Shown here in pieces: positions 7,096-34,186 of a stretch of 64,000 nt of DNA. The DNA comes from Psychromonas sp. Urea-02u-13. Its GTDB lineage: Bacteria > Pseudomonadota > Gammaproteobacteria > Enterobacterales > Psychromonadaceae. The first letter of the stretch is position 1, and every line of letters begins with the position of its first letter. Below the pieces are notes generated by a model. That model did not search any database. It was not told where the DNA came from and saw only the letters and a program-made list of their open reading frames with translations. The stretch lies in the NCBI RefSeq assembly GCF_002835995.1, contig NZ_PJBZ01000067.1, positions 1 through 64,000 of the forward strand, written 5' to 3'. Made by a program: the position numbers and the translations under genes.

Positions 7096-7443
7096 ATACC
7101 CGTTACTATTCAAGTTGCAAAGTTCAGCAAGTGATGAGGTGAACATATTTTAGGCAGGAAGTTGAAGGTATAACTGGTTCAATCAATACTTCCTAACAAC
7201 GAAGGTGTTTGCCTCATCGCTTGCCCTACGGGTCGCTAGCTCGCTTATTTATGTAACCATGGCAATTCTGCGTTGCAACATTTGATAAGGGCTAGCCATT
7301 AAAGAATGAAAGTATTTTATTTCATTCTTCCGATAGAGAATTAACGCAGTTAATTGCTCGAAAGGTCATCATGCTGCGTCTTGCCTTGCCATAGTTCGAT
7401 AAGAAGCGAGTTATGGCAAGGCACCTTGATTAGTAACGGGTAT
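7096..7443 (+). mobile_element. Non-autonomous repeat element, subfamily 1, copy A
   Basis: 348-bp element with terminal inverted repeats: left ATACCCGTTACTATTCAAGT, right ending TTGATTAGTAACGGGTAT. It carries the core CTTGCCCTACGGG in forward orientation. It codes for nothing convincing. The copy at 33767-34186 is the same element in reverse orientation with about 70 extra internal bases. It lies directly after the batD stop codon. Confidence 0.85.
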
Positions 7444-7448
7444 TTTTA

Positions 7449-9134
7449 TTATTGCGGGTTTATATCCATCGGATTAACGCTAGGTGCTGATTCTTTTATG
7501 GATTCATGTGTTTTTATTAATTCAGCGAGCTTAGTGGCTGTCCACTCACTATTTGCTTTACTGCAGCATTGTTGTAGATGTTGAATCTCATCTTTTAAAT
7601 GTTGTTTATCTGTTTCATTTAATGCTGTTTTATCAGCAAATTGACTGAGACTTTTCACATTTGGATATTGCGTTTGAGCGTAATATAACAAAGCGCTATA
7701 ACAGTGACTGGCGTTGTTGTTAGCAAAGCTATTTTTTAATGTCAGATAATGCTGATTTAACGGAGCAACCTTGGTTTTATGCTGTGTTTTATTATTACTG
7801 GTCAAGCGACGGTATGAAAGATGATAAAAAATCATCAATACGATTATCGCTATTAATAATGCAACGGCAATCTGCCAATAAATAAGTGCACTGTTATCAA
7901 CAATGATGGTTGGCTGTGGTTGCGCTATTTTAGGTTGAATAGTGGGTACGCTACTAACCTGTTGTTTATCTGCCGCTAAAATAGTTAATTCTTGAGCGGG
8001 TAAGATGGCTGTTTCTTGTTGGTTGGTTTGGCTATTAAACCAATTCAGCTTTATTTCTGGCAGCGTTAAAGTACCTACTTGGTCGGCAATGATCGCATGG
8101 CGAATAACACGGATTCCGTAATTCAAACCATTAGATTTAGCTTCCCCTAGCTGGTCTTGATCAGGATAAACACGCAGTGATTTAGGGTAGTTAAGTTTGA
8201 TGTTAGGTAGCTTATCTTTATCAACGGATGCTATTTGTAGGGTAATGCTACGTATGATTGCTTCGCCGACTTTATAGCTTTTTGCTGTTAATAGATTATC
8301 TTCAATTAAACGTAAATCATCACTGACAATCCAGGTGCCTTTGTAATCGTCTGGAATAGCTTGCACGTTAATACTTAAACGCTCTCCACGCACGTTAATG
8401 GGGTCGGAAACGACTCTATTTTGCCACTCACTAACGGCAATCACTTTACGCAGAGAACCGCTTAATAGTGGAGAGTCTATTTCAAATTTACCCGCTTGTG
8501 TGGCGGTCATTTTGTATTGACGGGTAATGGTATTGTAACGAATGCCATTACGCACGGTTTGGCTATTTTTATCTTGTCCAAATACTGCGTTTTCTGCACC
8601 TTCAAAATATGGCGCTTCTAAATCAAGATCATTACTGTTTTTTGAAATGTATAATTTAGTGGTAAAAATAAAAGATTGACCAATATAGACACTGTCTTTA
8701 TCAACATGATTCTCAATGAAAACCACGCTATCTTGATCCTGTGCATTTTGTGTTTTTTGAACCACTTCAGTGACGTTAATCTGAATGGCTTCGGTTGAGA
8801 GGTCGCCAATTTTAAATGCGGGAATGGTTAGTAGGCCGGTTTTATTTGCTTGAAGCCTAACTTGCCATTGTGTATTTTGACTAAAAACCCCATTCACATA
8901 TTCATTACTTTGGCTTTGTGATGGTCGAAATACCGTAAAGTCTTGTTCAAGTGGACGAGTATCAAGTTGGTAGTCATCGTCATTATCATTGACGCTTACG
9001 GTTAAAATAAAGCGATCACCTAATACAACATTCGTATCACTCACCGTTGCAGAGACTTGAACTGCTGAAAAGGCAGGGGAGCTGGTTAATAATGCCACTA
9101 AAAAAAGGCTCAAAAAAGAAAATGTGTTTTTCAT
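7449..9134 (-). CDS. batD: BatD family protein
   Basis: BatD-family protein of the moxR-bat operon, thought to act in the cell envelope together with the VWA proteins BatA and BatB. The biochemical role is not established. 561 residues: signal peptide (about 1-23, ending AFSA), a long stretch of beta-rich Ig-like repeats, one membrane segment at about 420-445 (IYWQIAVALLIAIIVLMIFY), then a ~110-residue cytoplasmic tail. Its ATG overlaps the batBC stop by one base. It is the last gene of the operon and a repeat element follows five bases after its stop. Confidence 0.88.
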   Translation of the reverse strand: MKNTFSFLSLFLVALLTSSPAFSAVQVSATVSDTNVVLGDRFILTVSVNDNDDDYQLDTRPLEQDFTVFRPSQSQSNEYVNGVFSQNTQWQVRLQANKTGLLTIPAFKIGDLSTEAIQINVTEVVQKTQNAQDQDSVVFIENHVDKDSVYIGQSFIFTTKLYISKNSNDLDLEAPYFEGAENAVFGQDKNSQTVRNGIRYNTITRQYKMTATQAGKFEIDSPLLSGSLRKVIAVSEWQNRVVSDPINVRGERLSINVQAIPDDYKGTWIVSDDLRLIEDNLLTAKSYKVGEAIIRSITLQIASVDKDKLPNIKLNYPKSLRVYPDQDQLGEAKSNGLNYGIRVIRHAIIADQVGTLTLPEIKLNWFNSQTNQQETAILPAQELTILAADKQQVSSVPTIQPKIAQPQPTIIVDNSALIYWQIAVALLIAIIVLMIFYHLSYRRLTSNNKTQHKTKVAPLNQHYLTLKNSFANNNASHCYSALLYYAQTQYPNVKSLSQFADKTALNETDKQHLKDEIQHLQQCCSKANSEWTATKLAELIKTHESIKESAPSVNPMDINPQ

Positions 9135-11065
9135 TACCAGATAACTCCGTTGTTTGTTTTTTGCTTAACAGGTTGAGATTGATTGCGTTTTTGATACTCA
9201 ATTTGCATTTTTCGACGTAATAAAATAGAAGGATCATCGGGCATATTTTTAAGCCAGTTAGGTAACGCTTCTAATTCTTGATTACTTTCTTCGTCGCTTT
9301 CGCTCAGTGGTTGTGCCGGCTGTTCATCCTGCTTATTTTCTTGTTGCTGCTTATCTTGCTCTGCTTGCTGTTGTTTTTGTTGCTGCTCTTTTTCTTCTTG
9401 TGCTTGTTGTTCTTTTTCATTTTGAGACTGTTGCTCTGCTTGTTTTTTATCTTGCTCAGACTGTTTTTGTGACTCTTGTTTCTCACTGTCTTTTTGCTGT
9501 TTATCTTGTTCTGAATCCTGCTGCTCTTGCTCTTTTTGTTGCTTATCTTGATCTGAATCTTGTTGCTGATCCTGTTGATTCTGATCATCCTTTTTCTGTT
9601 GTTTATCCTGTTTCTTATCTTTGTTTTGTTGCTGTTTCTGTTGATCTTTTTGCTGTTCTTGGATCTGTTTAATTACACCTTTGTTTTCTGCTGCCTGTTT
9701 CATAGCGGGATCAATAGCTAACGCGTTATCGTATGCTTCAATGGCTTTATCTAACTGTTGCAGTTGTGCGAAGTTATTACCTTGATTATAAAAGGTATCT
9801 GCATTATCTGGCTGTTGTTTGATTGCTTGATCAAATTTCTCAAGTGCCTGGTCATATTGTTTGTTTTTATATAACGCATTCGCTTGTTCTAATGGTGTTT
9901 CGTAAAGCTCACTGGCCCTTTGGTAGTCTTCATCTTGATAAGCATCATAGGCATTTTGTTGGTCGTTTTTCCAGATGGAGTCCTCTGTCTTTTCAACTAA
10001 CGTATTTTCTGCTGCTTCAAGTGGCGGACTACTTAAAGGTAAATATACGGCCAGTAAAAGGGCAAAGAAAACACCTTTTCGAAACAATAATAAAAACAGG
10101 GGTAATAATAAAAAACTTAACCAGTAACCATCATCAATAGAGAACTGATCTGACGCGGCTTGCTCTGATTCGTTTTTACGTGTTTGTTTTATATTATCGT
10201 AATAACTGCCGAGCTGGTTGATATCGCTGCTGTCATTACGACTGGTGAGATACAAACCATTGCTTGCCTGTGCAATATCATAAAGTGGTTGTCCTGATAA
10301 TTTAGGCACTATAATTTCGCCACTGTCACTTTTAAGTAACGAACCATTAGGTAATGTAATGGGCGCCCCTTGTTCTGTGGCGACGGCTAAAATAGACACT
10401 ATCCAGTCTTCACCTTTTAGAATTTCTTGCATCTCTTGTGATTGTTGCTCTGTTATATCATCACTAATAAAAACAATATGCCCTTGTGTATAACCGGCAT
10501 TTTTTAACAGTTCAATGGCTTTCTTTAAGGCTAGATCTGCACGCGAGCCTCTAACCGGCATAATGTCAGGGCTAAGATGGGGAATATGATTGATGATGGC
10601 ATTGCCATCCCGTGTTAATGGCGCAACGGTAAACGCATCGCCTGCATAGGCTATCATTGCTTTTTCGCCTTCGCTCCACTGTTTAATCAGATCAATGGCT
10701 TTGAATTTTGCTTGCGATAAACGGTTCGGTTTAATATCGGTAGCAAACATCGAATAACTCAAATCAAATACGATGACCTGTGCTTTTTCCATCTCATAAA
10801 CAGGCATCTCAATACTACGCCATGTCGGGCCTGCTAAGGCGATACAAGCAATCACAGCTAAACTATTAAACGCCCAAAAATGCGTCTTTGAATGACCTGC
10901 TTTGCTCACGATATTGGCACTGAGGTGAGGGGCTATTAAACCTTGGTGCTCTGCCTTGCTACTATTTTTAAAACGCAGTAGCGAAAAAACAAAGATGACA
11001 ATTAGGCCTAATAACCAAAGTGGACGTAAAAAATCCATTGGCATAGCGCTCATTTCAGGCAACAT
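9134..11065 (-). CDS. BatB/BatC fusion: VWA domain plus TPR and Gln-rich tail
   Basis: 643 residues. N-terminal membrane segments flank a von Willebrand A domain with the metal site DLSYS (about residues 98-102). A second pair of membrane segments comes near 310-345. Then come TPR repeats (about 380-465; YDQALEKFDQAI and LDKAIEAYDNAL are typical TPR helices). A highly charged low-complexity tail rich in Gln, Lys, Asp and Glu runs from about 468 to 600. In many bacteria BatB and BatC are separate, so this is a fusion. It overlaps batA by 11 bases. Confidence 0.88.
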   Translation of the reverse strand: MLPEMSAMPMDFLRPLWLLGLIVIFVFSLLRFKNSSKAEHQGLIAPHLSANIVSKAGHSKTHFWAFNSLAVIACIALAGPTWRSIEMPVYEMEKAQVIVFDLSYSMFATDIKPNRLSQAKFKAIDLIKQWSEGEKAMIAYAGDAFTVAPLTRDGNAIINHIPHLSPDIMPVRGSRADLALKKAIELLKNAGYTQGHIVFISDDITEQQSQEMQEILKGEDWIVSILAVATEQGAPITLPNGSLLKSDSGEIIVPKLSGQPLYDIAQASNGLYLTSRNDSSDINQLGSYYDNIKQTRKNESEQAASDQFSIDDGYWLSFLLLPLFLLLFRKGVFFALLLAVYLPLSSPPLEAAENTLVEKTEDSIWKNDQQNAYDAYQDEDYQRASELYETPLEQANALYKNKQYDQALEKFDQAIKQQPDNADTFYNQGNNFAQLQQLDKAIEAYDNALAIDPAMKQAAENKGVIKQIQEQQKDQQKQQQNKDKKQDKQQKKDDQNQQDQQQDSDQDKQQKEQEQQDSEQDKQQKDSEKQESQKQSEQDKKQAEQQSQNEKEQQAQEEKEQQQKQQQAEQDKQQQENKQDEQPAQPLSESDEESNQELEALPNWLKNMPDDPSILLRRKMQIEYQKRNQSQPVKQKTNNGVIW

Positions 11066-12038
11066 GGCGGCCCCTTAATTTTAAATAAAGCGTAAAGAGA
11101 AATAGAATTAATATCGCTAATGAAAGTGGCCAATAGAAAAGGTCTTTTTCAGGTCTAAATTCTAAAAAGTCACTTTCAATCGGCTCTAATAAATTCAATT
11201 GCTGGTAGATATCCTGTAATTCGTCTTGGTTACGAGCACGGAAGTATTGACCACCGGTTAATTTTGCAATTTTGGTTAATGTTTTTTCATCTAAGTCTGC
11301 AGAAGGGTTAACACGTTGCTTGCCCCAAAAACCTTTGCGTGTCATCTCATCGGCGCCAATACCAATGGTGTAAATGGTAATGTTGTTTTTGGCCGCTTGT
11401 TTAGCCGCTTGAAGCGGTTCGATAATACCCGATGTATTCGCACCATCAGTTAATAAAATAAGTACTCGTTGCTCATTTTTATTCTCCACAAAGCGTTTGA
11501 TTGCCAGTGCAATTGATTCACCAATAGCCGTTTTTTGCCCTACTAAGCCGAGTTCGGTTTCTGAGAGCATCTGTTTAATGGTTTTTAAATCAAAGGTGAG
11601 CGGGGTTTGTAAATAGGCGTGATCAGCAAACAGTATTAACCCTAATCGGTCACCGTTGCGCAAATCAATAAAGTCATTTAATAGGTCTTTTACTAAGGTT
11701 AAACGGTCCACGGTTTTGCCATTTAACTGCATATCCACCTCTTGCATACTGCCAGAGAGATCTAGCGAGACAATCATATCGCGGCTTTCTTGCTGTAGAC
11801 GAATCGGCTCACCAAACCAAATCGGTTTGGCTAATGCACAAAGTAGCAATAGCCATACTAACCAAGGAATAAAGACGTTTAAATTATTCTTTTGCGCGTC
11901 GGATTGTTGCTCCGTAATGCCCTGTGCCAGTGGTATCCACACTTGGGTATAACTGCGTTTCTGTGAGGCTAAGAAGTAACGGGCTAAAAGGGGCAAAGGT
12001 AATACAATAAAGACCCAAAGATAGGTGAACTCAAACAT
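11055..12038 (-). CDS. batA: BatA-like membrane VWA protein
   Basis: 327 residues: two N-terminal membrane segments (near 5-20 and 55-75), a von Willebrand A domain with the MIDAS motif DLSGS near residue 93, and a C-terminal membrane segment at about 303-322 (LSLAILILFLFTLYL). It is probably a partner of the BatB/C fusion at the inner membrane, assisted by the MoxR ATPase. Eight bases overlap the upstream DUF4381 gene, so translation is coupled. The metal ion or ligand it binds cannot be read from sequence. Confidence 0.88.
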   Translation of the reverse strand: MFEFTYLWVFIVLPLPLLARYFLASQKRSYTQVWIPLAQGITEQQSDAQKNNLNVFIPWLVWLLLLCALAKPIWFGEPIRLQQESRDMIVSLDLSGSMQEVDMQLNGKTVDRLTLVKDLLNDFIDLRNGDRLGLILFADHAYLQTPLTFDLKTIKQMLSETELGLVGQKTAIGESIALAIKRFVENKNEQRVLILLTDGANTSGIIEPLQAAKQAAKNNITIYTIGIGADEMTRKGFWGKQRVNPSADLDEKTLTKIAKLTGGQYFRARNQDELQDIYQQLNLLEPIESDFLEFRPEKDLFYWPLSLAILILFLFTLYLKLRGRHVA

Positions 12039-12531
12039 CTTTTCTTTCCTGTTTATTACTGTGTTTTTTAATCTGTTTTGGTAATTCGATTATCCAGCGT
12101 TTAGCATCGGAAAAGTCTTTGTCATCAATGCTATGGATATCTGTTTGGTACAAGCGTTGTAGAAATTCTTGTTTATTTTTGAACATCGGGGCTGTTGCGT
12201 ATTTTTGCAGAAATTCAAACCAAGACTCACCGTGTAATGAAGCGACCTCATCACGCGAGAAATAGCTTAAAGCACAACCTTTTAGTAACTGATTAAGCGC
12301 CACAAAGTTTGCTTTTTGTTGTTTCAACTGTGCAAGTTTAGCCAATTGCGCCTTTTGCATTTTTTGTTGAATTTTAATCTTTTTGAGAAAATAATAAACA
12401 CTACAAATGACTGCAATTATCAGGATTAATAACGCCCAGTAAATCGGTGCTGGCGGAAACCAATTCGGTGCTGTTGGGGCGATAATGTCGTTGAGTTGTG
12501 CCAGCGGATCTTGATTAGCGAGCGGGGACAT
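12031..12531 (-). CDS. DUF4381 family membrane protein
   Basis: 166 residues with one N-terminal membrane segment (about 29-48, IYWALLILIIAVICSVYYFL), then a basic helical cytoplasmic domain. It matches the DUF4381 family, regularly found between DUF58 and batA genes in gammaproteobacterial moxR operons. It has no known catalytic motif. It overlaps both neighbours (17 bases with the DUF58 gene, 8 with batA). Confidence 0.85.
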   Translation of the reverse strand: MSPLANQDPLAQLNDIIAPTAPNWFPPAPIYWALLILIIAVICSVYYFLKKIKIQQKMQKAQLAKLAQLKQQKANFVALNQLLKGCALSYFSRDEVASLHGESWFEFLQKYATAPMFKNKQEFLQRLYQTDIHSIDDKDFSDAKRWIIELPKQIKKHSNKQERKDV

Positions 12532-13471
12532 GAAATTGTTCCATTAATGGCGATGATGCACAAATATTATAAAGCGGGATTCCCTGCTTAATAAAAGTAT
12601 TTTCTATTTTTTGTTGGCGTAACGTGGCTGCATCTTGGTAGTCTTTTGACGCATTTTTTTTAAAGAAACCACTGCCATTTAAGCTATTAATTTGCAGTTG
12701 TGTTTTGAGTGCTTTTTTAGGTAATAATTGCTCTAAAGGATCACTGATTTGCCAAGCATTTATCTGGTTATGACGATTAATCAGCGTTAATAGTTTCTGG
12801 CAACTTTCATCAAGTTGCGAAAAGTCACTGATCAAATGTATTTGGCTACCCGTTTGTACTAAGCGTGATAAACGTTTCAGCTGTAATAATAACGATTGCG
12901 GATGATCATTGTTTTTAAAGGGTTGAGGCACACACAATTGTTGGCTTTGATGTATAAATCGCATCAGGCCTTTACTGCGACCAGTTGGTTTTAGTTCGGC
13001 AACCTGTTGTTGATTAAATACAATGCCACCTAAGCGATCACCACGTTGTTTTGCTTGCCAGCTTAGCAGTGAAGCAAGATGACAGGCTTGTACCGATTTA
13101 AAGACAAACTGACTACCAAAAATCATGCTGTCGGAAAGGTCCAAAAGAATAAATACTGGACGTTCTTTCTCTTCGTGAAATAGTTTGGTATGTGCTTTAC
13201 CGGTGCGCGCGGTGACAGACCAGTCAATAGTGCGCACATCATCACCTGATTGATAATGACGGACTTCGGCAAACTCCATGCCACGGCCTTTAATTTTGGC
13301 TAAATAGTTACCGGCTAATTGCTGGTAAGCGGCGGTCGCACGTGGTTGAAGTTGCAGCTTCTCTTGCTGTTTATAACTGAGCAATTCATTCAGCTGCACA
13401 TCTACCCCGGTTTGATAGGGGGTATTGTCAAACAGGGCGATCGTTTTTTGTTTGTTTTTCAAAGAAGTCAT
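12515..13471 (-). CDS. DUF58 domain protein of the moxR operon
   Basis: 318 residues, no signal peptide or membrane segment. It carries the DUF58 signature block REVRHYQSGDDVRTIDWSVTARTGK-like as AEVRHYQSGDDVRTIDW (about residues 68-84), followed by a VWA-like half with LLDLSDSM. The MoxR-DUF58 pair is widespread and thought to act as a chaperone-like unit for metal loading or complex assembly. Its ATG overlaps the moxR stop (TAATG). Confidence 0.9.
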   Translation of the reverse strand: MTSLKNKQKTIALFDNTPYQTGVDVQLNELLSYKQQEKLQLQPRATAAYQQLAGNYLAKIKGRGMEFAEVRHYQSGDDVRTIDWSVTARTGKAHTKLFHEEKERPVFILLDLSDSMIFGSQFVFKSVQACHLASLLSWQAKQRGDRLGGIVFNQQQVAELKPTGRSKGLMRFIHQSQQLCVPQPFKNNDHPQSLLLQLKRLSRLVQTGSQIHLISDFSQLDESCQKLLTLINRHNQINAWQISDPLEQLLPKKALKTQLQINSLNGSGFFKKNASKDYQDAATLRQQKIENTFIKQGIPLYNICASSPLMEQFHVPAR

Positions 13472-14430
13472 TATGCAGGCAGCGCAACTTGGTTGATGAT
13501 TTCTTTAATTACGCGGTTAGCATTAATGCCTTGTGCTTCAGCTTCATAACTTAAAATAAGGCGATGACGTAATACCGGATATAGATTTTGGATAATATCG
13601 TCTGGCATCACATAATCACGGTTATCAAGCCATGCGCGTGCTTTTGCAGTACGCATCAATGCCAGTGTTGCACGAGGGCTTGCGCCGTAGCTTATCCACT
13701 CTTTAAGCTGACTGCCGTAACGCTCTGGCTGACGTGTTGCGATAATAAGGTCAATCAAGTATTGCTCTAGGTGCGGTGCAATATTGATGTTCATAATTTC
13801 TTTGCGAATGGCAAATATTTGCTCGTTCAGCAAAGGAGTTACTTCGGCGACTTTCTCTTTTAAAATCTCTTTATGATTAAGCGCTAAAATCTCTTTTTCG
13901 GTAGCTGCATCAGGGTAATCAAGCTCTAAATGCATAATGAAGCGGTCTAATTGTGCTTCAGGCAACGGGTAAGTTCCCTCTTGTTCAAGCGGGTTTTGTG
14001 TCGCCATTACTAAAAACAGTTCTGGAAGTTTATAGGTTGTTTTACCGACGGTGATTTGATGCTCTGCCATGGCTTCTAATAAGGCTGATTGCACTTTTGC
14101 TGGCGCACGGTTTATCTCATCGGCCAAAATCAAATTATGGAAAAGCGGGCCTTTTTCAAAGATAAACTCACCGGTTTCTTGGCGGAAAATATCGGTGCCG
14201 GTTAAATCAGAAGGTAATAGGTCTGGAGTAAACTGAATGCGGTGGAAGTCTCCCTCAATGCCATCTGAAAGTGCATTAATCGCACGTGTTTTAGCAAGTC
14301 CGGGGGGGCTTTCTACTAAAATGTGTCCATCGGCTAATAAAGCAATTAATAAACCATCAACCAAGTCACTTTGGCCTAAGATCATTTTATTAAGGTACAC
14401 ACGAAGTGCATCAAGTTGTTGTTTTGCCAT
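13471..14430 (-). CDS. moxR: MoxR family AAA+ ATPase
   Basis: AAA+ ATPase, first gene of the moxR-bat operon. 319 residues from the ATG at 14430, preceded by AAGAAG at good spacing. The Walker A region is ESPPGLAKT, Walker B LILADEINRAP, sensor-1 MATQNPLEQEGTYPLPEAQLDRF contains the family-typical QNP motif. A longer frame opens at 14484, but its first 2-3 codons lie inside the repeat element ending at 14477 and it lacks a ribosome site, so I rejected that start. MoxR proteins act with VWA partners in maturation of complexes. The target here is unknown. Confidence 0.93.
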   Translation of the reverse strand: MAKQQLDALRVYLNKMILGQSDLVDGLLIALLADGHILVESPPGLAKTRAINALSDGIEGDFHRIQFTPDLLPSDLTGTDIFRQETGEFIFEKGPLFHNLILADEINRAPAKVQSALLEAMAEHQITVGKTTYKLPELFLVMATQNPLEQEGTYPLPEAQLDRFIMHLELDYPDAATEKEILALNHKEILKEKVAEVTPLLNEQIFAIRKEIMNINIAPHLEQYLIDLIIATRQPERYGSQLKEWISYGASPRATLALMRTAKARAWLDNRDYVMPDDIIQNLYPVLRHRLILSYEAEAQGINANRVIKEIINQVALPA

Positions 14431-14476
14431 ATTAATATTCTTCTTAAATTTTAGTTCTGGAGAGTTATTGAATAAT

Positions 14477-14737
14477 ATACCCATGCTACCTCAAGATGCA
14501 AAGTCAGCAAGGCAAATTGTGCTGAGATACTAGGCATAAAATTGAAGCCTAGTCATTCTAAGTCGAAATTTTATAACGACGTAGATCGGTACAAGTTGCC
14601 TTGCCCTACGGGGCGCAAGCTCGAAAACCAGTTCGGCGTTACAACAATCAAAAAGTGAATAACAATTACCTCATATTGTGCCTTGCTCTGGTTATCGAGC
14701 TTGTGCCTGACAAAGCATCTTGAGGTAACATGGGTAT
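14477..14737 (+). mobile_element. Non-autonomous repeat element, subfamily 2, copy C
   Basis: 261-bp element with terminal inverted repeats: left ATACCCATGCTACCTCAAGA, right TCTTGAGGTAACATGGGTAT. The core CCTTGCCCTACGGGGCGC is in forward orientation. Internal inverted arms CTGGTTATCGAGCTTG-type allow folding. It is the reverse-orientation counterpart of the element at 15854-16178. It lies between the moxR start and the 46-aa gene. The flanks AAT (14474-14476 and 14738-14740) could be a target duplication. Confidence 0.85.
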
Positions 14738-14876
14738 AATAGTCACTTGTCTGTCAAGAAAGTTCCCTTATTTCCTCCCAGATATAAGCTTTTATGATTT
14801 CAAACATGTTTTTTTTCTATTCTTTACGTATTATTAACAAATTATCATTTATTTTAACGACTGAAGGGAGTTAAAC

Positions 14877-15017
14877 ATGAGCGCATTAGAATCGTTTATT
14901 TGGCACACGTTAGGTTATGCGGCTATGCCTGTGATATTTTTTGGCGGGTTTATTGGTGTTTTTTTTGTTGCTTGCGCAATTTTGAAGATGACAGGTAATA
15001 CGCCTGTCGAAGATTAA
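14877..15017 (+). CDS. Small single-span membrane protein (46 aa)
   Basis: 46-residue peptide (starts MSALESFIWH, ends NTPVED) with one hydrophobic segment at about 15-38. A strong ribosome site (GGGAG) sits six bases before the ATG, and a terminator with a long T tract follows, so it looks like a monocistronic gene. It resembles the short-protein family TIGR02808 known from Vibrio and relatives. That match is from memory. No function is known. Confidence 0.75.
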   Translation: MSALESFIWHTLGYAAMPVIFFGGFIGVFFVACAILKMTGNTPVED

Positions 15018-15052
15018 GATAAAAACGCTACAGCTACGAAGTAAATATTGAT

Positions 15053-15088
15053 AAGCTTTCTGATTAATTTTAGAAAGCTTTTTTTTTG
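15053..15088 (+). terminator. Rho-independent terminator after the 46-aa gene
   Basis: 9-bp stem AAGCTTTCT / AGAAAGCTT with a 10-base loop, followed by eight or more T. 36 bases after the stop codon. Confidence 0.85.
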
Positions 15089-15099
15089 TCTTTTTTAGG

Positions 15100-15132
15100 G
15101 AGTTTAGTTGCGTAACTAAACTCTGTTATAAT
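15100..15132 (+). promoter_or_regulatory. Promoter with perfect palindrome upstream of sixA
   Basis: A perfect -10 hexamer TATAAT at 15127-15132. The expected -35 region is covered by a perfect 10-bp inverted repeat (GAGTTTAGTT / AACTAAACTC, spacer GCGT, 15100-15123), with only a poor -35 match (TTTAGT, 18-base spacer). The layout suggests a repressor or activator operator. I do not recognise the regulator. Confidence 0.5.
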
Positions 15133-15734: not shown

Positions 15735-16429
15735 ATGAATCACTTCAAACTGGCTGTTGCTCAAGTTGCGTCGATTAAAGGGGATATCGACGCGAATATA
15801 AAGACGCACTTGAAAGCACTAATAAAGGCCAGTGAGTTAAATGTTAACTACTTATACCCATGCCACCTCAAGATGCGTTGTCAGGCACAAGCTCGATAAC
15901 CAGAGCAAGGCACAACATGAGGTAACCTATCGAACGTTAACTACGTGAACCTTCTAACGGTAGGATTAAAAAAAGACGTTAATCTATTATTGTTATTCAC
16001 TTTTCGATTGTTGTAACGCTGGGCTGGTTTTCGAGCTTGCGCCCCGTAGGGCAAGGTAACTTGCACCCATCTACGTCGTTATAAAATTTCGACTTAGAAT
16101 GACTAGGCTTCAATTTTATGCCTGGTATATCGGCACAATTTGTCTTGCTGACTTTGCATCTTGAGGTAGCATGGGTATTTGCCAGTGTGTTGATTAGTGA
16201 GGCGGGTTACAGTGAAGATACTGCTGTGCTTAAAGGTTATGCCAAAAAATTCAACATACTGGTTGCAATGGCAAACCATAATCGGGCAACCGGTGGGTGG
16301 AAACCGATTGGAAAAAATGCAATTTGGTCAAACACTGGATTACTTGCACAAGCAAATGAAACACAAGATGCCTTGATTGTCGCAGAAAAACGAGAGGCCG
16401 GCTGGATTGCTCAAGTGTTTGAAATATAA
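15735..16429 (+). pseudogene. Nitrilase-family hydrolase remnant, split by a repeat element
   Basis: The first 40 codons (15735-15854; MNHFKLAVAQVASIKGDI) are the N-terminal strand and helix of a carbon-nitrogen hydrolase. The frame then enters the repeat element and stops at 15899. After the element, 16179-16429 restores the C-terminal ~83 residues (GYAKKFNILVAMANHNR ... GKNAIWSNTGLLAQ). The normal family length is about 250-280, so about 120-140 residues including the catalytic Glu, Lys and Cys are missing, not just interrupted. A frame from 16118 joins element sequence to this remnant and is not a real gene. Confidence 0.85.
15854..16178 (-). mobile_element. Non-autonomous repeat element, subfamily 2, copy D
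   Basis: 325-bp element with ends ATACCCATGCCACCTCAAGA and TCTTGAGGTAGCATGGGTAT. It is reverse-oriented relative to copy C (core reads GCGCCCCGTAGGGCAAGG on the plus strand). It has about 65 internal bases (15932-15998) that C lacks. Internal inverted arms at 15885-15903 and 16024-16042 can pair. It is inserted inside a nitrilase-family gene. Confidence 0.85.
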
Positions 16430-25500: not shown

Positions 25501-25501
25501 G

Positions 25502-26122: not shown

Positions 26123-26241
26123 ATAGAGACTTGAAGGCCATAGGGCTGGAAAGTTAAGTATTAAGCTAACAGCTATCGGCTAAAAGCTGACAGCTTTGGT
26201 TTATTGGCATAATGAGAATTACCCAAAGTAAGGAATTTAAA

Positions 26242-27129
26242 ATGAGTGAAAAATTACAAAAAGTATTAGCGCGAGCTGGTAAAGGATCCCGTCGTAAGAT
26301 GGAAACTATTATTGCTGAAGGACGCGTAAGTGTTGACGGTAAAGTAGTGGGGCTTGGCGAGCGTGTTACTGATAACCAAGTGATTCGTTTAGATGGCTTT
26401 GTAGTGAAGTACATTACTGAAGCAGACACGGTTTGTCGTGTTTTAGCGTACAACAAACCAGAAGGTGAGGTTTGTACACGTAGTGATGAAGAAGGCCGTA
26501 AAACTGTTTTCGAACGTCTTCCTCACTTAAATGGCGGTCGTTGGATCTCTATTGGTCGTTTAGATATCAATACATCAGGTTTATTATTATTTACCACTGA
26601 TGGTGAATTTGCTAACCGCATGATGCACCCGAGCCGTGAAGTAGAGCGTGAATACGCAGTGCGTATCTTCGGTGAAGTGGATGATGCAATGCTTAACCGT
26701 TTACGTATGGGTGTAAAACTTGACGATGGTGAAGCTAAATTCTTATCGATCAAAGAATCGGGTAAAGAAGCTGGCGGTGAAGGTATTAACCGTTGGTACC
26801 ATGTTGTATTAACAGAAGGACGTACACGTGAAGTACGTCGTTTATGGGAAAGCCAAGGCGTACAAGTGAGTCGTTTAATGCGTGTGCGTTACGGTCAATT
26901 ACATCTTGATAAACAACTACCTCAAGGTGGTTGGGTTGAGCTTGGCCTTAAAGAAGTGAATCACTTCCGTAAATTGGTTGAGTTACCTAAAGAAACAGAA
27001 AGTAAAGTACGTATTGATGAAAAGAAAACAACCAATACACAAGCACGTATTCGTCGTGCAGTGAAAAAACATACGCAGCATCGTAAATCGACAGAACGTC
27101 GTCGTAATACATCACGTACACGTAACTAA
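26242..27129 (+). CDS. rluB: 23S rRNA pseudouridine(2605) synthase RluB
   Basis: 295 residues from the ATG at 26242, preceded by AAGGA; a start 30 bases earlier lacks a ribosome site. S4 RNA-binding domain (residues about 1-60; [16 protein letters not shown]), then the RsuA/RluB pseudouridine synthase domain with the catalytic Asp in [17 protein letters not shown]. The C-terminal 50 residues are a basic Arg/Lys/Thr tail. Modifies a uridine in helix 89 region of 23S rRNA in known homologues. Confidence 0.93.
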
Positions 27130-27181
27130 ACATTAGCTTCGAGCTTGTTAGTTCGGGACTTTTAGTTATTAGCGAAAAAAG

Positions 27182-27218
27182 AAAAGGGCTCACTTGTATT
27201 AACAAGTGAGCCCTTTTT
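27182..27218 (+). terminator. Rho-independent terminator of the rnm-yciO-rluB operon
   Basis: Perfect 15-bp stem AAAGGGCTCACTTGT / ACAAGTGAGCCCTTT with an ATTA loop and a T tract, 52 bases after the rluB stop. Confidence 0.92.
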
Positions 27219-27238
27219 ATTTATAGCTGTTAGTTCGC

Positions 27239-27360
27239 AACTCGAAGCTAGTTGTTCGTGGCTAGAATCTCGCAACTCGAAGCTAGTTGTTCGTGGCCAG
27301 AATCTCGTAACTCGAAGCTAGTTGTTCGTGGCCAGAATCTCGTAACTCTAAGCTTGTAGC
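27239..27360. repeat. 35-bp tandem repeat between rluB and the cyclophilin gene
   Basis: Three units of 35 bp (27239-27273, 27274-27308, 27309-27343), each beginning AACTCGAAGCTAGTTGTTCG, and a partial fourth to 27360. The second and third are identical. The motif AACTCGAAGCTA is also present in inverted form near 27131-27150 (TAGCTTCGAGCTTGTTAG), on the other side of the terminator. Confidence 0.85.
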
Positions 27361-27914
27361 TACTTCATCTCTCTATCTAACAGCTTAATACTGTTAATAA
27401 TGACTGGTTGAACGGGTTTATCTGCGCTTGCTGTTTTGACTTTTGCAATAGCATCAACCACGTCCATACCTAGTGTGACTTCACCAAATACTGCATAACC
27501 CCAATTACCACCGTTAGCATCTAAAAACGCGTTATCTTTATGGTTAATAAAGAATTGGCGTGCTGCTGAGTGTGGGTTACCTGTACGTGCCATCGAGATA
27601 GTGCCACGCTCATTGCTTAAACCGTTACGAGATTCATTTTGAATAGGCGGTAGGGTATCTACTTTATTACCTGTTTTCGCTGAAAAACCACCGCCTTGAA
27701 TCATAAAACCATTAATCACACGGTGAAATGTTGTTTTTTTGTAACCGTCTTTTTGCACATAAGCTAAAAAATTAGCCACTGTTTTAGGGGCTTCATCGGG
27801 GAATAACTCGATGATGATCTGCCCCTTTGATGTTTCCATGACCACAGCTGGATTTTCTGCTGCTAGCGCACTGTGACTCATTGCTAATATAAATAGGGAT
27901 AAAAGTAGTTTCAT
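27360..27914 (-). CDS. ppiA: Periplasmic peptidyl-prolyl cis-trans isomerase, cyclophilin type
   Basis: 184 residues with a signal peptide (1-18, cleavage after SALA), so it acts in the periplasm and catalyses proline isomerisation in folding proteins. Cyclophilin core motifs: FHRVINGFMIQGGG (catalytic Arg and Phe), MARTGNPHSAARQFFIN and GYAVFGEV. Its stop overlaps the last base of the 35-bp repeat array. Named by analogy with E. coli PpiA. Confidence 0.9.
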   Translation of the reverse strand: MKLLLSLFILAMSHSALAAENPAVVMETSKGQIIIELFPDEAPKTVANFLAYVQKDGYKKTTFHRVINGFMIQGGGFSAKTGNKVDTLPPIQNESRNGLSNERGTISMARTGNPHSAARQFFINHKDNAFLDANGGNWGYAVFGEVTLGMDVVDAIAKVKTASADKPVQPVIINSIKLLDREMK

Positions 27915-27976
27915 GGTGTTGTCCTGTTGTTATTCTATATAAGTGTTGTGCTATTTAAGCGTTGTTATATAAGTAT

Positions 27977-28567
27977 TTAAAGTTGCAGTAGTTTATCGTT
28001 AAGTTCTGGATCTTGAACGATTTGATCTAATAATTGTGATAACTGCGTATTTAATTGTGTTGCTAAGACTTCTACATCAGCGCTAAAAGCTGCTTTCTCT
28101 TCGTAATGCGAACGAAAGGTTTTACTAAAGGTGCTTTTATCGGAATTAAGTTGAATCTTAATAATGACGTTAATATCTGTTTCATGGCTTAGCGTGCCCT
28201 GTTCGACTTCGGCTAATAACTTAATCAGTTGCACCTCTATTTGGTGACTATTACCTTGGTTATCGGTAAAGCGGTAACCTTGTTTAGTCCAGTGGTTTTG
28301 TAATAATTTTTCCACGCTGATACGTGTACTGATTGATTCATTAACCAGTGTCGCAACATCATCTCCTGCGCTAATCGCAATCAAATAACGCGCAGTGCGA
28401 AAGTCTTTACTGTCTAAAAGCCATTTCTGATTTTTTTCTACCTTATTAATAGTGATATTGTCATTTAAATTCGGTGTTAATTTTAAGCTCGTAGGGGTAC
28501 TTGAACAGGCGGATAAAAATAGCGTTGATAATAATATTACCGGTAATGTTAAAGAAATAGTGCGCAC
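27977..28567 (-). CDS. yajG: YajG-like lipoprotein
   Basis: 196 residues with a lipoprotein signal: hydrophobic segment then LSAC, with lipidated Cys21 followed by SS. It resembles E. coli YajG (192 residues), an outer-membrane lipoprotein of unknown function. No catalytic motif is visible. It is 62 bases upstream of the cyclophilin gene on the same strand and could share its transcript. Confidence 0.75.
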   Translation of the reverse strand: MRTISLTLPVILLSTLFLSACSSTPTSLKLTPNLNDNITINKVEKNQKWLLDSKDFRTARYLIAISAGDDVATLVNESISTRISVEKLLQNHWTKQGYRFTDNQGNSHQIEVQLIKLLAEVEQGTLSHETDINVIIKIQLNSDKSTFSKTFRSHYEEKAAFSADVEVLATQLNTQLSQLLDQIVQDPELNDKLLQL

Positions 28568-28865
28568 AATGATCTTCCTATATAACGTTGATGAGAGGCT
28601 AGCATAACAAATTTATCGGGGAAGTTTTACAAACGGGCTATTTTTAGCCATTACAAATATTAACTTTTTAAAAATAGCTTATAAATGCATTGTATTTGTA
28701 GTCTTTCATTATCTATTGTTTATCGTGCGTGAGTGTTGCTTGTTTATGGCATTTATCTGTTTTTTGTACAAAACATGATCAAACAGTGTTATTTAATGAG
28801 GGGGGAGATCTTCGAATAAATGATCTCACTTTGCTGTAGAGCTGATGTACGCTAGGCTAGCAGAG

Positions 28866-28890
28866 GTTATCCACTTTTCCTGTGGATAAC
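28866..28890. promoter_or_regulatory. Inverted DnaA-box pair (hairpin)
   Basis: GTTATCCAC and GTGGATAAC form a perfect 9-bp inverted repeat with a 7-base spacer. TGTGGATAA at 28881-28889 is the exact complement of the DnaA consensus TTATCCACA, and TTATCCACT differs by one base. A role of DnaA upstream of E. coli uvrB has been described in the literature, as I recall. Confidence 0.55.
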
Positions 28891-29154
28891 TCTGTGGGGC
28901 GTTATCTGAAAAGGTGCTGAAAGGCTGATGGTTACTTGCTTTGCTTTACATTGGCGCAAAAACGAACATAAAATTTATTCGTTTAAAAACAGTGTGTTAT
29001 ATATGTCAAGAGTGCTTTTTTATTTTTTGTTTGATGTTTTTTTTTGATAATTCTGAAAACTTAATGTCAAACTTTTTCTGTGAATTATTGTTAATTTAAG
29101 TGAAAAATAATAATTGACAAGTGTATTGAATTGTATGTTTTTATTGTTTGTTTT

Positions 29155-29200
29155 ATAAACATCGATAAACATCGATAAACATCGATAAACATCGATAAAC
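29155..29200. repeat. 10-bp tandem repeat ATCGATAAAC
   Basis: Four exact copies of ATCGATAAAC (29161-29200) preceded by a partial one (ATAAAC). The 10-bp period places each unit on the same face of the helix, which suits a protein-binding or bent-DNA site. About 210 bases before the uvrB start. Confidence 0.85.
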
Positions 29201-29408
29201 AATTATTTATTCATAAAAGCGTGTAAGATCATTTTCATTTCAGTAGTGCATTAATGATCACTTTACTATTTAGTCGCTGTGATTAGCCTTGTTAATGAAT
29301 TGTTAATATGTGTAAATGAAGCTCTCGTCCAATTATTGTCTCTAAAGTTATAATTGTGTGATATTTTTATGTTTAGTGGTTATTGTTCCGTTTAATTTTG
29401 AGGCGCTT

Positions 29409-31421
29409 ATGGAAAAATTATTTCAATTAACATCTCCTTTTTCTCCTGCTGGAGATCAACCAGAAGCGATCAAACAGCTTATTGATGGGATTGAATCTGG
29501 GCTTGCTTTTCAAACGCTGCTTGGTGTAACGGGATCGGGTAAAACCTTTACCCTGGCTAACACCATAGCTGCCTTAAATCGACCGACGTTAATTTTAGCG
29601 CCCAATAAAACATTAGCAGCCCAATTATATGGAGAGATGAAAGAGTTCTTTCCTAATAATGCCGTTGAATATTTTGTTTCTTATTATGATTATTATCAGC
29701 CAGAAGCTTATGTGCCAAGTTCTGATTCATTTATCGAGAAAGATGCCGCTGTTAATGCGCATATCGAGCAGATGCGCCTTTCTGCGACGAAAGCATTGCT
29801 TGAACGTAAAGATGTCGTGTTAATTGCCTCTGTGTCTGCTATTTATGGTTTAGGCGATCCTACTGCCTATTTAAAGATGATGTTACATCTTACCGTGGGA
29901 GAGATAATTTCAAGTCGCGAGATCTTACAACGTTTAGTCGACCTGCAATATAACCGCAACGAAACAGAGCTGAGTCGCGGTACTTTCCGCGTTCGTGGTG
30001 AAGTGGTTGATATATTCCCTGCCGATTCTGAAATTGATGCGTTACGTATTGAGTTGTTTGATGATGAGGTTGAAAAAATCACTATATTTGACCCATTAAC
30101 AGGTCAAACCTTAGATAACCTGACACGTGTAACGGTTTATCCTAAAACGCATTATGTCACCCCTCGCGAACAAATCCTCAAAGCCATAGATAACATCAAA
30201 GAGGAACTTAATGAGCGTAAAAAAGAGTTTTTGGCAGAAAATAAATTAATCGAAGAACAACGAATCTCGCAACGTACGCTCTATGATATTGAGATGATGA
30301 ATGAGCTCGGTTACTGCTCAGGCATTGAAAACTATTCTCGTTACCTCTCTGGTCGAGAGCAAGGCGCTGCACCGCCAACACTCTTTGATTATTTGCCAAA
30401 TGATGGATTGTTAATTATCGATGAAAGCCATGTTACCGTACCTCAAATTGGCGCTATGTATAAAGGGGATCGTAGTCGTAAAGAAAACTTAGTGAATTAT
30501 GGTTTCCGTTTACCGTCGGCTTTAGATAATCGTCCAATGATGTTTGAGGAGTTTGAAAAAATAGCGCCGCAAACTATCTATGTATCAGCAACACCCAGTG
30601 ATTATGAGATTGAAAAGTCGCAAGGGGATATCGTCCGTCAGGTCATTCGCCCGACTGGTTTATTAGACCCTGTGATTGAAGTACGCCCTGTTGATACACA
30701 AGTGGATGATCTGCTTTCTGAAATCAACCTACGCGTCCCATTAAGAGAACGCGTATTGGTAACTACGTTAACCAAACGTATGGCCGAAGATCTCACTGAT
30801 TACCTTAATGAGCATGGCATTAAAGTGCGTTACCTACACTCGGATGTGGATACCGTTGAGCGTGTCGAGATTATTCGTGATCTGCGCTTAGGCGTATTTG
30901 ATGTGTTGATTGGTATTAACTTATTACGTGAAGGGTTAGATATTCCAGAGGTTTCGCTGGTTGCGATATTAGATGCGGATAAAGAAGGTTTTTTACGTTC
31001 AGAGCGTTCACTGATTCAGACCATGGGCCGAGCAGCCCGTAATCTGAAAGGCAAAGCTATTTTGTATGCGGGCAGAGTTACTGGCTCGATGCAAAAAGCC
31101 ATTAAAGTGACCGAAGATAGGCGAGCATTACAACATCAATTTAATATTGATAACGGTATTACACCGCAAGGGTTAACTAAAGCGGTTAATGATGTGATGC
31201 AGTTAGGACAACGTAATATTAAAAAAGGTAATTCTAAACAAGCTAAGGTTGCTGAATATAAAGCAACTTATGAAGTCCATAGTGAGCAATACATTCTTAA
31301 GCAGATAGCAAAACTTGAAAAGCAGATGTTTGCTTTTGCTAAAGACTTAGAGTTTGAAAAAGCCGCACAACTTCGTGATGAGGTAAGTAAGTTACATGAG
31401 CAACTGCTAAGCATCGGATAA
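29409..31421 (+). CDS. uvrB: Excinuclease ABC subunit B
   Basis: Damage-verifying helicase-like subunit of nucleotide excision repair; works with UvrA and UvrC. 670 residues from the ATG at 29409 (E. coli 673), with GAGG upstream; a start 51 bases earlier adds an unrelated N-terminus. Walker A GVTGSGKT, beta-hairpin region [15 protein letters not shown], helicase motifs DESHVT and QTMGRAARN, and the C-terminal UVR motif ([13 protein letters not shown]) that binds UvrC. Confidence 0.97.
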
Positions 31422-31434
31422 TAGTGCTCTGTGG

Positions 31435-31462
31435 ATAAAGTGTGTTAAATAACACACTTTAT
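31435..31462 (+). terminator. Perfect palindrome after uvrB
   Basis: 13-bp perfect inverted repeat ATAAAGTGTGTTA / TAACACACTTTAT with a 2-base centre, 13 bases after the uvrB stop. The following T tract is weak (GATTTTGC), so it may end transcripts or only stabilise them. Confidence 0.6.
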
Positions 31463-31579
31463 GATTTTGCTGTGATGCCGGTTTATAATCCCTTGATTTT
31501 ATTTGTTAGACTCCCTTCTTGATACCTGTATAAGTGCCTGCTATGGGGCATACATCATTCAAGGAAGATGGTCGCTACT

Positions 31580-33022
31580 ATGAATAAACAAGTCTCTTCA
31601 TTATCTTTTGTTTCAATAAACCTACTTTTATTACCTTCCACCAGTTTTGCTTCATCAGTTGAAACGCTTGATCTGACCAGTTCATTTACTGGTTATTTTG
31701 CCTTGTTGGTATTTTTTATTGCCTATCTTGCGGTGATGGCAGAAGAATATCTGCATATGAGAAAATCAAAGCCGGTACTGGTTGCGGCTGGGATTATTTG
31801 GGGCAGTATTGCGTGGGTGTATGCGCAACATGGTTTGTCTGAATCAGCAGAGCAGATGTTCCGACATAATCTTTTGGAATACTCCGAATTGTTGCTGTTT
31901 TTATTAGTTGCGATGACTTATATCAATGCGATGGAAGAGCGTCGGTTATTTGATGCACTACGTGCTTGGATGATCAACAAAGGCCTGTCTTTAAAATCTA
32001 TTTTTTGGTTAACAGGTTGTTTAGCCTTTTTTATCTCTCCGGTTGCAGATAACCTGACGACGGCACTATTAATGTGCACCGTGGTGATGAAAGTTGGGGG
32101 GGATAATAAACGTTTTATTGCCATTTCATGTGTCAATATCGTTGTTTGTGCAAATGCGGGCGGTGCATTTAGTCCCTTTGGAGATATAACTACACTGATG
32201 GTTTGGCAAAGTGGAGATATTGAATTCTCGCAGTTCTTTGTATTATTTATCCCCGCCGTTGTGAATGCTATCATTCCAGCTACTATCATGAGTTTGTTTA
32301 TCGAAAAACGTTTTCCTGATGCGGTAAATGAAAAAGTAGAACTTAAGCGTGGTGCTTTTCGTATATTGACACTATTTTTAGTGACTATTAGCTTAGCAGT
32401 ATTATCACATTCAATATTACATATGCCACCCGTATTAGGCATGATGACAGGGTTAGGCTTACTGCAATTCTTTGGTTACTTTTTGCGTAAAACTTTACCC
32501 CGTTCACTTGCAAAAAAGCGCGCGGTTGCTGAACAACACCACGATTCGCAGCGCCTAAAACACCTCGGTGGAATCGTACCCTTTGACGTTTTTAATCGTG
32601 TGGCAAAATCCGAGTGGGATACTTTGTTGTTCTTTTATGGGGTGGTGCTATGTGTTGGGGGATTAGGATTTATTGGTTATCTTAGTTTAGTCTCAGAGGT
32701 GATGTATACACAATGGGACATCACTTACGCCAATATTACGGTCGGTGTGCTCTCTGCTATAGTGGATAATATCCCGGTAATGTTTGCGGTGCTGAGTATG
32801 AGCCCTGAGATGTCGACTGGACAATGGTTATTAGTGACCTTAACTGCTGGGGTAGGTGGTTCATTGCTGTCGATTGGTTCGGCTGCGGGTGTGGCAATAA
32901 TGGGGCAAGCGCGTGGTATTTATACTTTTGGTGCGCATTTAAAATGGACGCCTGTTATTGCACTTGGTTATGTCGCCAGCATATTGATGCATTTATGGTT
33001 GAATGAAGCATTATTTACTTAA
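31580..33022 (+). CDS. nhaD: Na+/H+ antiporter NhaD
   Basis: Inner-membrane sodium/proton antiporter of the NhaD type, common in marine bacteria, exporting Na+ at alkaline pH. About 480 residues with 11-12 membrane segments and the family blocks SPVADNLTTALLM, NAGGAFSPFGDITTLM and DNIPVMFAVLSM. The N-terminus (to about residue 25) looks like a signal peptide. Start uncertain: the ATG at 31568 is only two bases after AAGGA and the ATG at 31580 fourteen bases after. A hairpin follows the stop. Confidence 0.9.
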   Translation: MNKQVSSLSFVSINLLLLPSTSFASSVETLDLTSSFTGYFALLVFFIAYLAVMAEEYLHMRKSKPVLVAAGIIWGSIAWVYAQHGLSESAEQMFRHNLLEYSELLLFLLVAMTYINAMEERRLFDALRAWMINKGLSLKSIFWLTGCLAFFISPVADNLTTALLMCTVVMKVGGDNKRFIAISCVNIVVCANAGGAFSPFGDITTLMVWQSGDIEFSQFFVLFIPAVVNAIIPATIMSLFIEKRFPDAVNEKVELKRGAFRILTLFLVTISLAVLSHSILHMPPVLGMMTGLGLLQFFGYFLRKTLPRSLAKKRAVAEQHHDSQRLKHLGGIVPFDVFNRVAKSEWDTLLFFYGVVLCVGGLGFIGYLSLVSEVMYTQWDITYANITVGVLSAIVDNIPVMFAVLSMSPEMSTGQWLLVTLTAGVGGSLLSIGSAAGVAIMGQARGIYTFGAHLKWTPVIALGYVASILMHLWLNEALFT

Positions 33023-33029
33023 TGAAACC

Positions 33030-33114
33030 AAGCTATCGGCATTCAGCTATCAGCCTTCAGTAAGTTCTTGATTTGTTATTTTGAACTTAACTGATAGCTG
33101 ACAGCTGATGGCTT
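33030..33114. terminator. Long imperfect hairpin between convergent nhaD and maf
   Basis: Left arm 33030-33067 and right arm 33083-33114 pair over about 30 bases with mismatches (AAGCTATCGG...TAAGTTC against GAACTTAACTGATAGC...GGCTT). It fills the gap between the two stop codons and probably works in both directions. The AGCTATCAGC/AGCTGACAGC motif also occurs near 26163-26195. Confidence 0.65.
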
Positions 33115-33117
33115 CTT

Positions 33118-33711
33118 TTAAACTACTTTCATACCTTCATTTTCTAGCATCTTAATTAACGAGATCAACGGTAAGCCAATAAGGCTGTTTGGGTCTTTAC
33201 CCTCAAAGGCATCAAACAGTGCAATGCCATAACCTTCACTTTTAAAGCTGCCAGCACAATTATAAGGTTCCTCCTTATTAAGGTAGTTAGTAATCATTTC
33301 ATCGCTTAATACTCGAAACTTAACCACAAAAGGTTCAACTAATGATTGTACCTTGCCTGTTTTACTATTAATAAGCGCGAGACCGGTATAAAAGGTAATG
33401 CTTTTTCCGCTGGCCGCTTTTAGCTGTTTAAAAGCATTTTCAAAATTGTGTGGTTTACCTAATATTTCCCCGTCGTTGACACACACTTGGTCTGAACCAA
33501 TGACCAGGGCATTATCAAAATTCGGGACAATAGCCTGTGCCTTTTTAATGGCTAAACGCTCCACCAATTGCAATGCAGTTTCATCTTGTAAAGCAGTTTC
33601 GTCTACATTAGGTTTCTCGGTTAAAAAACGCAGGTGTAATTTCTCTAATAATTGTTTTCTAAAAGGAGAAGTAGAGGCTAAAACAAGTGTTTGTGGCATA
33701 AATGAACTCAT
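33118..33711 (-). CDS. yceF: Maf/YceF family nucleotide pyrophosphatase
   Basis: House-cleaning enzyme that hydrolyses modified nucleoside triphosphates; the YceF subgroup prefers m7GTP. 197 residues. Family motif near the start: LASTSPFRKQLLEKL, then ETA-type Glu in DETALQLVERLAIKKA and the Asp in VIGSDQVC. Divergent from yceD here as the first member of the E. coli-like yceF-yceD-rpmF-plsX-fab neighbourhood, but it reads the other way and a repeat element separates them. No strong ribosome site is visible. Confidence 0.92.
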   Translation of the reverse strand: MSSFMPQTLVLASTSPFRKQLLEKLHLRFLTEKPNVDETALQDETALQLVERLAIKKAQAIVPNFDNALVIGSDQVCVNDGEILGKPHNFENAFKQLKAASGKSITFYTGLALINSKTGKVQSLVEPFVVKFRVLSDEMITNYLNKEEPYNCAGSFKSEGYGIALFDAFEGKDPNSLIGLPLISLIKMLENEGMKVV

Positions 33712-33766
33712 TGGTTAAAAAGGAATTTGACTATATTAAGGCGAGAAAAGGATTAAAGCGAGTAAT

Positions 33767-34186
33767 ATACCCGTTACCAATCAAGGTGCTTTGTTCAGTC
33801 GCTAGCTCGCTTCTTATCGAACGATGGCAAGGCAAGGCGCAACATGATGACCTTTCGAGCAATTAACTGCGTTAATTCTCTATCGGTAGAATGAAATAGA
33901 ATACTTTCATTCTTTAATGGCTAGTCCTTATCGAATGTTGCAACGCTGAATTGCCATGGTTACTAAATAAGCGAGCTAGCGATCCGTAGGGCAAGTTGTG
34001 AGATAAACATCTTCGTTGTCTTTCGATCAATTGACTTCGCCAATTCTCTGCCGACGTTTAGCAAATGCGAGTATTTAATAAATAGTTAGGGAGCATCGAT
34101 TGAACCAGTTAGACCTTCAACTCCCTGCCTAGAATCTGTTCACCTCACCACTTGCTAAACTTTGCATCTTGAAGGGTAACGGGTAT
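33767..34186 (-). mobile_element. Non-autonomous repeat element, subfamily 1, copy B
   Basis: 420-bp element with ends ATACCCGTTACCAATCAAGG and ATCTTGAAGGGTAACGGGTAT-type (last 20 bases TCTTGAAGGGTAACGGGTAT). Reverse complement of copy A (7096-7443) over nearly its whole length with scattered differences and an extra internal stretch at about 34014-34090. Internal arms CGCTAGCTCGCTT and AAGCGAGCTAGCG can pair. It lies between divergent yceF and yceD. Confidence 0.85.

What the first reader, a model, noticed from the sequence alone, without database searches (positions are those of the whole stretch)
7096..34186. Superfamily of mobile repeat elements in two subfamilies, four copies in 64 kb
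Four elements (7096-7443, 14477-14737, 15854-16178, 33767-34186) share ends ATACCC/GGGTAT, a core TTGCCCTACGGGKCGC and internal inverted arms, but their terminal 20 bases fall into two groups (CGTTAC.. and CATGCYACCTCAAG..). Within each subfamily one copy is longer by a 65-70 base internal module, and the two copies are in opposite orientation. No coding capacity. They look like non-autonomous elements (MITE-like) moved by an unseen transposase, with strong folding potential.
Basis: seen in the sequence. Interest (0 to 1): 0.75.

Follow-up and report, generated by a model that had tools for sequence, protein, structure and literature searches.

The report
IS630-type miniature mobile elements, Psychromonas
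The four repeats are short, non-coding mobile DNA elements scattered through a marine bacterium's genome, probably moved by a common family of insertion sequences that shares their ends, and unusual mainly for a strongly conserved folded shape that can carry extra hairpin cassettes.

Summary
The four elements belong to a family of 68 BLAST clusters, fragments included, in this draft Psychromonas genome. It has at least three subfamilies (A: E1, E4; B: E2, E3; C elsewhere) and relatives in other Psychromonas and three other families of the order. Each element is TACCC...GGGTA at a TA: 33 of 53 copies with both ends have TA on both sides. Empty sites in relatives fit duplication of TA, cleanest where a copy splits a PhnA/YjdM gene. 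IS630-family insertion sequences with an intact 341-aa transposase and similar ends (18-22 of 25 bases) occur in sister species; the own genome shows only two transposase fragments. An E. coli ERIC has the same end layout. So these are IS630-type MITEs of the ERIC/RUP kind. Beyond a plain MITE: the roughly 260-nt body keeps a four-way-junction fold with heavy covariation (50 of 75 pairs), and a 64-70-nt double-hairpin cassette in either arm largely explains the length classes. Movement was not observed, and the role of the fold is unknown.

The parts
7097..7442 (+). E1, subfamily A, 346 bp, one cassette (site X); core on + strand
7221..7236 (+). core TTGCCCTACGGGTCGC of E1 (contains the tiny CCC-TAC-GGG hairpin of the consensus fold)
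7301..7364 (+). cassette X of E1 (64 nt, right arm)
14478..14736 (+). E2, subfamily B, 259 bp, no cassette; core on + strand (14601-14616)
   Evidence: empty site in three relatives
15855..16177 (-). E3, subfamily B, 323 bp, one cassette (site X); core on - strand (16039-16054); lies in a broken carbon-nitrogen hydrolase gene
15925..15988 (-). cassette X of E3 (64 nt)
15735..15851 (+). N-terminal 39 codons of the broken hydrolase gene
16178..16426 (+). C-terminal 83 codons of the broken hydrolase gene
33768..34185 (-). E4, subfamily A, 418 bp, two cassettes (sites X and Y); core on - strand (33979-33994, one mismatch)
33852..33915 (-). cassette X of E4 (64 nt, right arm)
34020..34086 (-). cassette Y of E4 (67 nt, left arm)

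Best explanation
[quoted passage not shown] An IS630-family transposase is thought to recognise the roughly 25-bp ends (TACCC, about 8 variable bases, TCAAG-N-TGC), mobilise the element and insert it at a TA, which is duplicated. Shown here: a multicopy family, exact ends, TA duplication at empty sites, insertion into genes, and IS630 elements with similar ends in sister species. Inferred: that this transposase moves them and that a working one was or is present in this genome, where only two fragments are assembled. The body is not a deleted copy of those IS; it is an old non-coding sequence of its own that keeps a four-way-junction fold, which I infer matters for mobility or persistence. Length classes come largely from a 64-70-nt double-hairpin cassette in one or both arms.
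For: 37 exact cores vs 0 control; 71 and 63 BLAST pieces, 68 clusters; two C copies at unrelated sites identical over 266 bp; 33 of 53 copies with TA on both sides at a TA dinucleotide frequency of 0.080; empty sites with the PhnA/YjdM gene split so that the two pieces match profile positions 1-27 and 29-69; E4 absent in 21 relatives with both flanks; IS630 elements L128-L131 with TA flanks and 18-22 of 25 end matches on both sides, transposases in NF033545 at 221-231 bits, cut-off 100.
Against: No complete IS630 in the assembled own genome. End similarity is 18-22 of 25, not identity; 18 is also reached by loci without such ends (L133, L143) and by a shuffle, so the weakest ends count only by position and TA. 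20 of 53 copies lack TA on one or both sides. C272, C90, C255 and C266 copies gave no exact empty site; C179 only with gaps. Movement itself not observed.
Confidence: 0.85

Rival explanations
1. They are mainly structured RNA or single-strand DNA elements with a cellular job, such as mRNA stabilisers or attenuators, that spread as MITEs and are now kept for the fold.
For: Covariation in both arms: 50 of 75 pairs changed on both sides, score 0.430 vs 0.155 in shuffles; consensus energy lower on the core-forward strand, -80.7 vs -64.2; more G-U than A-C cells in the left arm, 83 vs 18. Enterobacterial ERIC is reported to affect mRNA (passages of PMC2229807 and PMC10969869).
Against: No orientation bias relative to genes in rough gene calls: same direction 12, opposite 19, divergent 18, convergent 6, edge 1 of 56; single-sequence folds no better on one strand, 21 of 36; E4 and E2 sites are empty in relatives, so positions are not conserved.
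Confidence: 0.2
2. They are recombining repeats that spread by homologous recombination or gene conversion between copies, without a transposase.
For: E3 sits at a deletion junction; cassettes and a short stem variant are mixed among copies and subfamilies.
Against: Exact ends, TA duplication, clean empty sites, near-identical young copies at unrelated sites, ends shared with an IS.
Confidence: 0.03
3. They are REP/BIME-like palindromes moved by a REP-associated tyrosine (Y1) transposase.
For: Intergenic, palindromic and many copies.
Against: Far longer than REPs, with long terminal inverted repeats and TA duplication, which fit IS630. The Y1 transposase family was not searched for.
Confidence: 0.02

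Closest known systems
ERIC / IRU / RU-1 (MITEEc1; related MITEPlu5 of Photorhabdus)
   Same: End layout: 19 of 25 bases shared between the right end of one E. coli ERIC (L233) and the A-type end, counted by hand; TA duplication and inverted ends reported (passages of PMC2759123, PMC6267812); strong folding; similarity of MITEPlu5 ends to CCC-type IS630 reported there. ERIC variants with inserts of about 70 bp are recalled, not from a call.
   Different: ERIC is 123-127 bp and folds as one long hairpin; this family is about 260 bp with a four-way junction. A C element finds nothing in E. coli at E 1, although 5375 of 5426 E. coli genomes hold ERIC cores, so the bodies are not detectably alike. 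The second ERIC locus (L234) has less well matched ends.
RUP of Streptococcus pneumoniae with IS630-Spn1
   Same: Non-autonomous, ends resemble an IS630, TA target (passages of PMC2229807).
   Different: 107 bp and another lineage; no sequence comparison was made here.
CCC-type IS630 elements (ISPlu3, ISPlu8, ISPlu19; here L128-L131)
   Same: Ends with CCC close to the TA; the Psychromonas IS share 18-22 of 25 end bases with the MITEs.
   Different: About 1.1 kb with a transposase gene; alike only in the outer 21-28 bp, plus one B-end-like stretch inside the start of L128. The ISPlu sequences themselves were not compared.

Membership tests
IS630-type MITE | Short, non-coding, multicopy, terminal inverted repeats | tested here: met
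   53 of 56 curated copies with both ends; 177-418 bp
IS630-type MITE | TA target duplicated on insertion | tested here: met
   33 of 53 with TA on both sides; empty sites
IS630-type MITE | Ends shared with an IS630 that encodes a transposase | tested here: met
   L128-L131, 18-22 of 25 on both sides; L131 has one in-frame stop; in sister species, not complete in the own genome
IS630-type MITE | Moved in trans by that transposase | not testable with these tools
   needs an experiment
ERIC | ERIC-type ends | tested here: met
   19 of 25 bases with one ERIC end, counted by hand
ERIC | ERIC body of about 127 bp | tested here: not met
   body about 260 bp; C element without match in E. coli
Rfam RNA families | Match above a family's gathering score | tested here: not met
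   0 matches in the window
RUP | RUP sequence | not tested
   only passages of PMC2229807 were seen

The most novel reading that the evidence does not exclude
The element is more than a pair of transposase ends. Its roughly 260-nt four-way-junction fold is itself selected, as RNA or as extruded single-stranded DNA, across at least four families of the order, and it serves as a platform into which a 64-70-nt double-hairpin cassette is placed at three sites and in two orientations: a nested modular system in which the fold, not only the ends, decides mobility or survival.
Probability: 0.3. Interest if true: 0.6.

Novelty: new variant of a known kind. Interest (0 to 1): 0.4.

Why it matters
It extends the ERIC/RUP type of IS630-linked MITE to a larger family in cold-sea gammaproteobacteria that I did not find described in the papers searched, with a candidate transposase in sister species. 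A review seen in passages says that movement of such elements by transposases had no experimental support at its date (PMC2229807); here an intact IS630 with similar ends makes a trans-mobilisation test direct. The covariation of the arms poses a testable question: why would a passive passenger of a transposase keep a four-way-junction fold?

Tried and rejected
Rejected: Rfam families (0 matches in the window at gathering score); spread by phages or plasmids (E2 no match in phages or plasmids, C no match in plasmids; B-end pattern 0 in viral contigs, core 16-mer in 15 viral loci but none with an element by BLAST; A was not tried there); strand-specific RNA role by gene orientation (no bias); cassette as a free-standing repeat (48 hits in the loci held, 45 beside a recognisable core, and one of the other 3 at a contig end; loci fetched twice are counted twice).

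Papers: passages of PMC10969869, PMC6267812, PMC2759123 and PMC2229807 were seen, others only as listings. The search for Psychromonas with MITE gave 0 papers. ERIC inserts of about 70 bp are recalled.

Full report
Observation. The genome is a draft of 4.75 Mb in 320 contigs; the window is contig C288:1-64000. By one window protein (318 aa) the nearest named relatives are Psychromonas hadalis and P. marina, 89% identical (records very near the window's genome may be left out there).

Copies and subfamilies. BLAST with E4 and E3 against the own genome gives 71 and 63 matching pieces. With surroundings fetched these form 68 clusters, fragments included. A third subfamily, C, has seven copies, 93.7-100% identical to one of them; two at different places are identical over 266 bp. 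I curated 56 copies: 12 clusters with truncated or diverged ends left out, one split copy merged, one joined pair parted. 53 of 56 have both ends. TA lies on the left in 40, on the right in 42 and on both sides in 33 of 53; TA makes up 0.080 of dinucleotides in the stretches held.

Exact ends and target. At E2, own flanks minus element and minus one TA span 19 nt between aligned anchors; P. marina, P. hadalis and G011 also have 19 nt there (read by eye, since the program placed gaps differently). The cleanest case is the A copy at C270:5595-5855: two relatives (G013, G021) align without a gap over 35 bases on each side when one TA is kept, the reading frame of 113 codons is broken by the element and continuous without it, and the two pieces match Pfam PF03831 (YjdM/PhnA) at positions 1-27 and 29-69. 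So the element is TACCC...GGGTA with TA duplicated. At C179 the junction aligns with gaps; C266, C272, C90 and C255 were too diverged to decide. E4 is absent between maf and yceD in all 21 loci where both genes were found, of 22 examined. P. marina also shows no element at the E1 site, but the junction cannot be resolved.

E3 and its gene. E3 separates 39 N-terminal from 83 C-terminal codons of a gene that is whole (about 246 codons) in L278, L279, L281 and L282; codons 40 to about 164 are missing. The relative's protein is a carbon-nitrogen hydrolase, PF00795, 73 bits. The C-terminal piece matches in 8 of 24 genomes, own included. In P. hadalis (L280) the frame is also short (112), and L283 and L284 do not carry the N-terminal piece in order. 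E3's right side lacks TA. I read this as a deletion beside E3, perhaps by recombination between elements.

The likely mover. The own genome has two IS630 transposase fragments, both at contig ends, 72% identical to the L130 protein. In the genus 19 of 24 genomes have the DDE_3 domain. I inspected the 30 loci kept out of the longer list of places. L128, L129, L130 and L131 are bounded by TA and by ends matching a MITE end at 18-22 of 25 bases on both sides; L132, L136 and L139 reach 19-22 on one side only; the own fragment L081 reaches 18 at its one remaining end. One mononucleotide shuffle per locus gave at best 17 and 18, and the non-matching loci L133 and L143 also reach 18, so ends at 18 count only by position and TA. 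About ten other IS630 loci have quite different, CCAA/CCAT-type ends and serve as a natural contrast. L128, L129 and L130 carry intact 341-aa ORFs in NF033545 at 231, 225 and 221 bits (cut-off 100); L131 has one stop. The IS in L129 lies between two ORF pieces with integrase-like domains (PF12167; PF13102 below its cut-off). IS and MITE are alike only in the outer 21-28 bp, plus one B-end-like stretch inside L128, so the MITEs are not plain internal deletions of these IS.

Outside the genus. Of 295 genomes of the order (a sample of a larger group), 46 match E2, in 12 of 99 genera; 21 of the 23 Psychromonas genomes in that sample match. Nine genomes of one other family (f2) have full-length matches of 67-73%; others are partial, several of them ends only. 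E2 had no match in phages or plasmids, C none in plasmids or E. coli.

Fold. From 52 short-form candidates (one, in L086, evidently chance) I aligned 36: 7 A, 6 B, 4 C, 7 from other Psychromonas, 9 from f2 and 3 from two more families; mean column identity 78%. RNAalifold gives a four-way junction: end stem, left arm, tiny CCC-UAC-GGG hairpin at the core, right arm. Of 2,696 cells 94.7% pair (79.3% in shuffles, 35-40% when slid); 50 of 75 pairs have changes on both sides, against 33.6 in shuffles and 20-28 when slid; the covariation score is 0.430 against 0.155, reached by 0 of 500 shuffles. The structure was derived from this alignment and the sequences are related, so both controls flatter it; still the margin is large and includes the arms, not just the ends. 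Which strand matters is open: the consensus is more stable core-forward (-80.7 vs -64.2) but single sequences are not (21 of 36); G-U cells exceed A-C cells in the left arm (83 vs 18, 21 of them from one pair) and in the right arm (61 vs 26, 36 of them from one invariant pair); copies show no orientation bias to genes (rough gene calls).

Cassettes. Length classes come largely from a 64-70-nt piece of two small hairpins. It lies at one place in the right arm in A and B (site X), at one place in the left arm in A (site Y), and at another in the left arm of B, inverted; the inverted form is seen at C112:151060 and, cut by the contig end, in P. hadalis (start of L083). Against 500 shuffles each, X of A is like X of B (22.5, best shuffle 9.0), Y of A (15.5, 11.0) and inverted Y of B (27.5, 10.0); X of B is barely above for Y of B (16.5, 15.5); X of B with Y of A, and Y of A with Y of B, are not above. 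Of 48 cassette hits, 45 lie beside a recognisable core.

Verdict. These are IS630-type MITEs of the ERIC/RUP kind; the ends are ERIC-like (19 of 25 with one E. coli ERIC end, counted by hand), the body is not. New are the size, the conserved junction fold and the cassette scheme; unproven are movement and any role of the fold.

Noticed in passing
own genome C157:7300-7876 (L066): A C element and a B element lie head to tail with one shared TA between them, as if one inserted at the TA beside the other.
   Followed up: partly
own genome C283:12778-12842 (L061 2079-2143): A 65-bp minimal copy that is little more than the two A-type ends, with TA on both sides.
   Followed up: no
own genome C270:5595-5855 (L014): A subfamily A copy splits a PhnA/YjdM gene.
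   Followed up: yes
window 15735-16426: Carbon-nitrogen hydrolase gene broken at E3, with about 125 middle codons missing.
   Followed up: yes
A and B copies, e.g. C179:14107-14445 and C288:75078-75414: A short stem variant (CCATGGTT...AATAAG type) is shared by subfamilies A and B and sometimes present on one side of the stem only, which suggests exchange between copies.
   Followed up: no
L129 1383-2498: IS630 element lying between two ORF pieces with integrase-like domains (the second match is below its cut-off).
   Followed up: partly
L128 997-1015: Just inside its left end, this IS630 has a second stretch like the inner part of the B-type end (CATGCTACCTCA).
   Followed up: no
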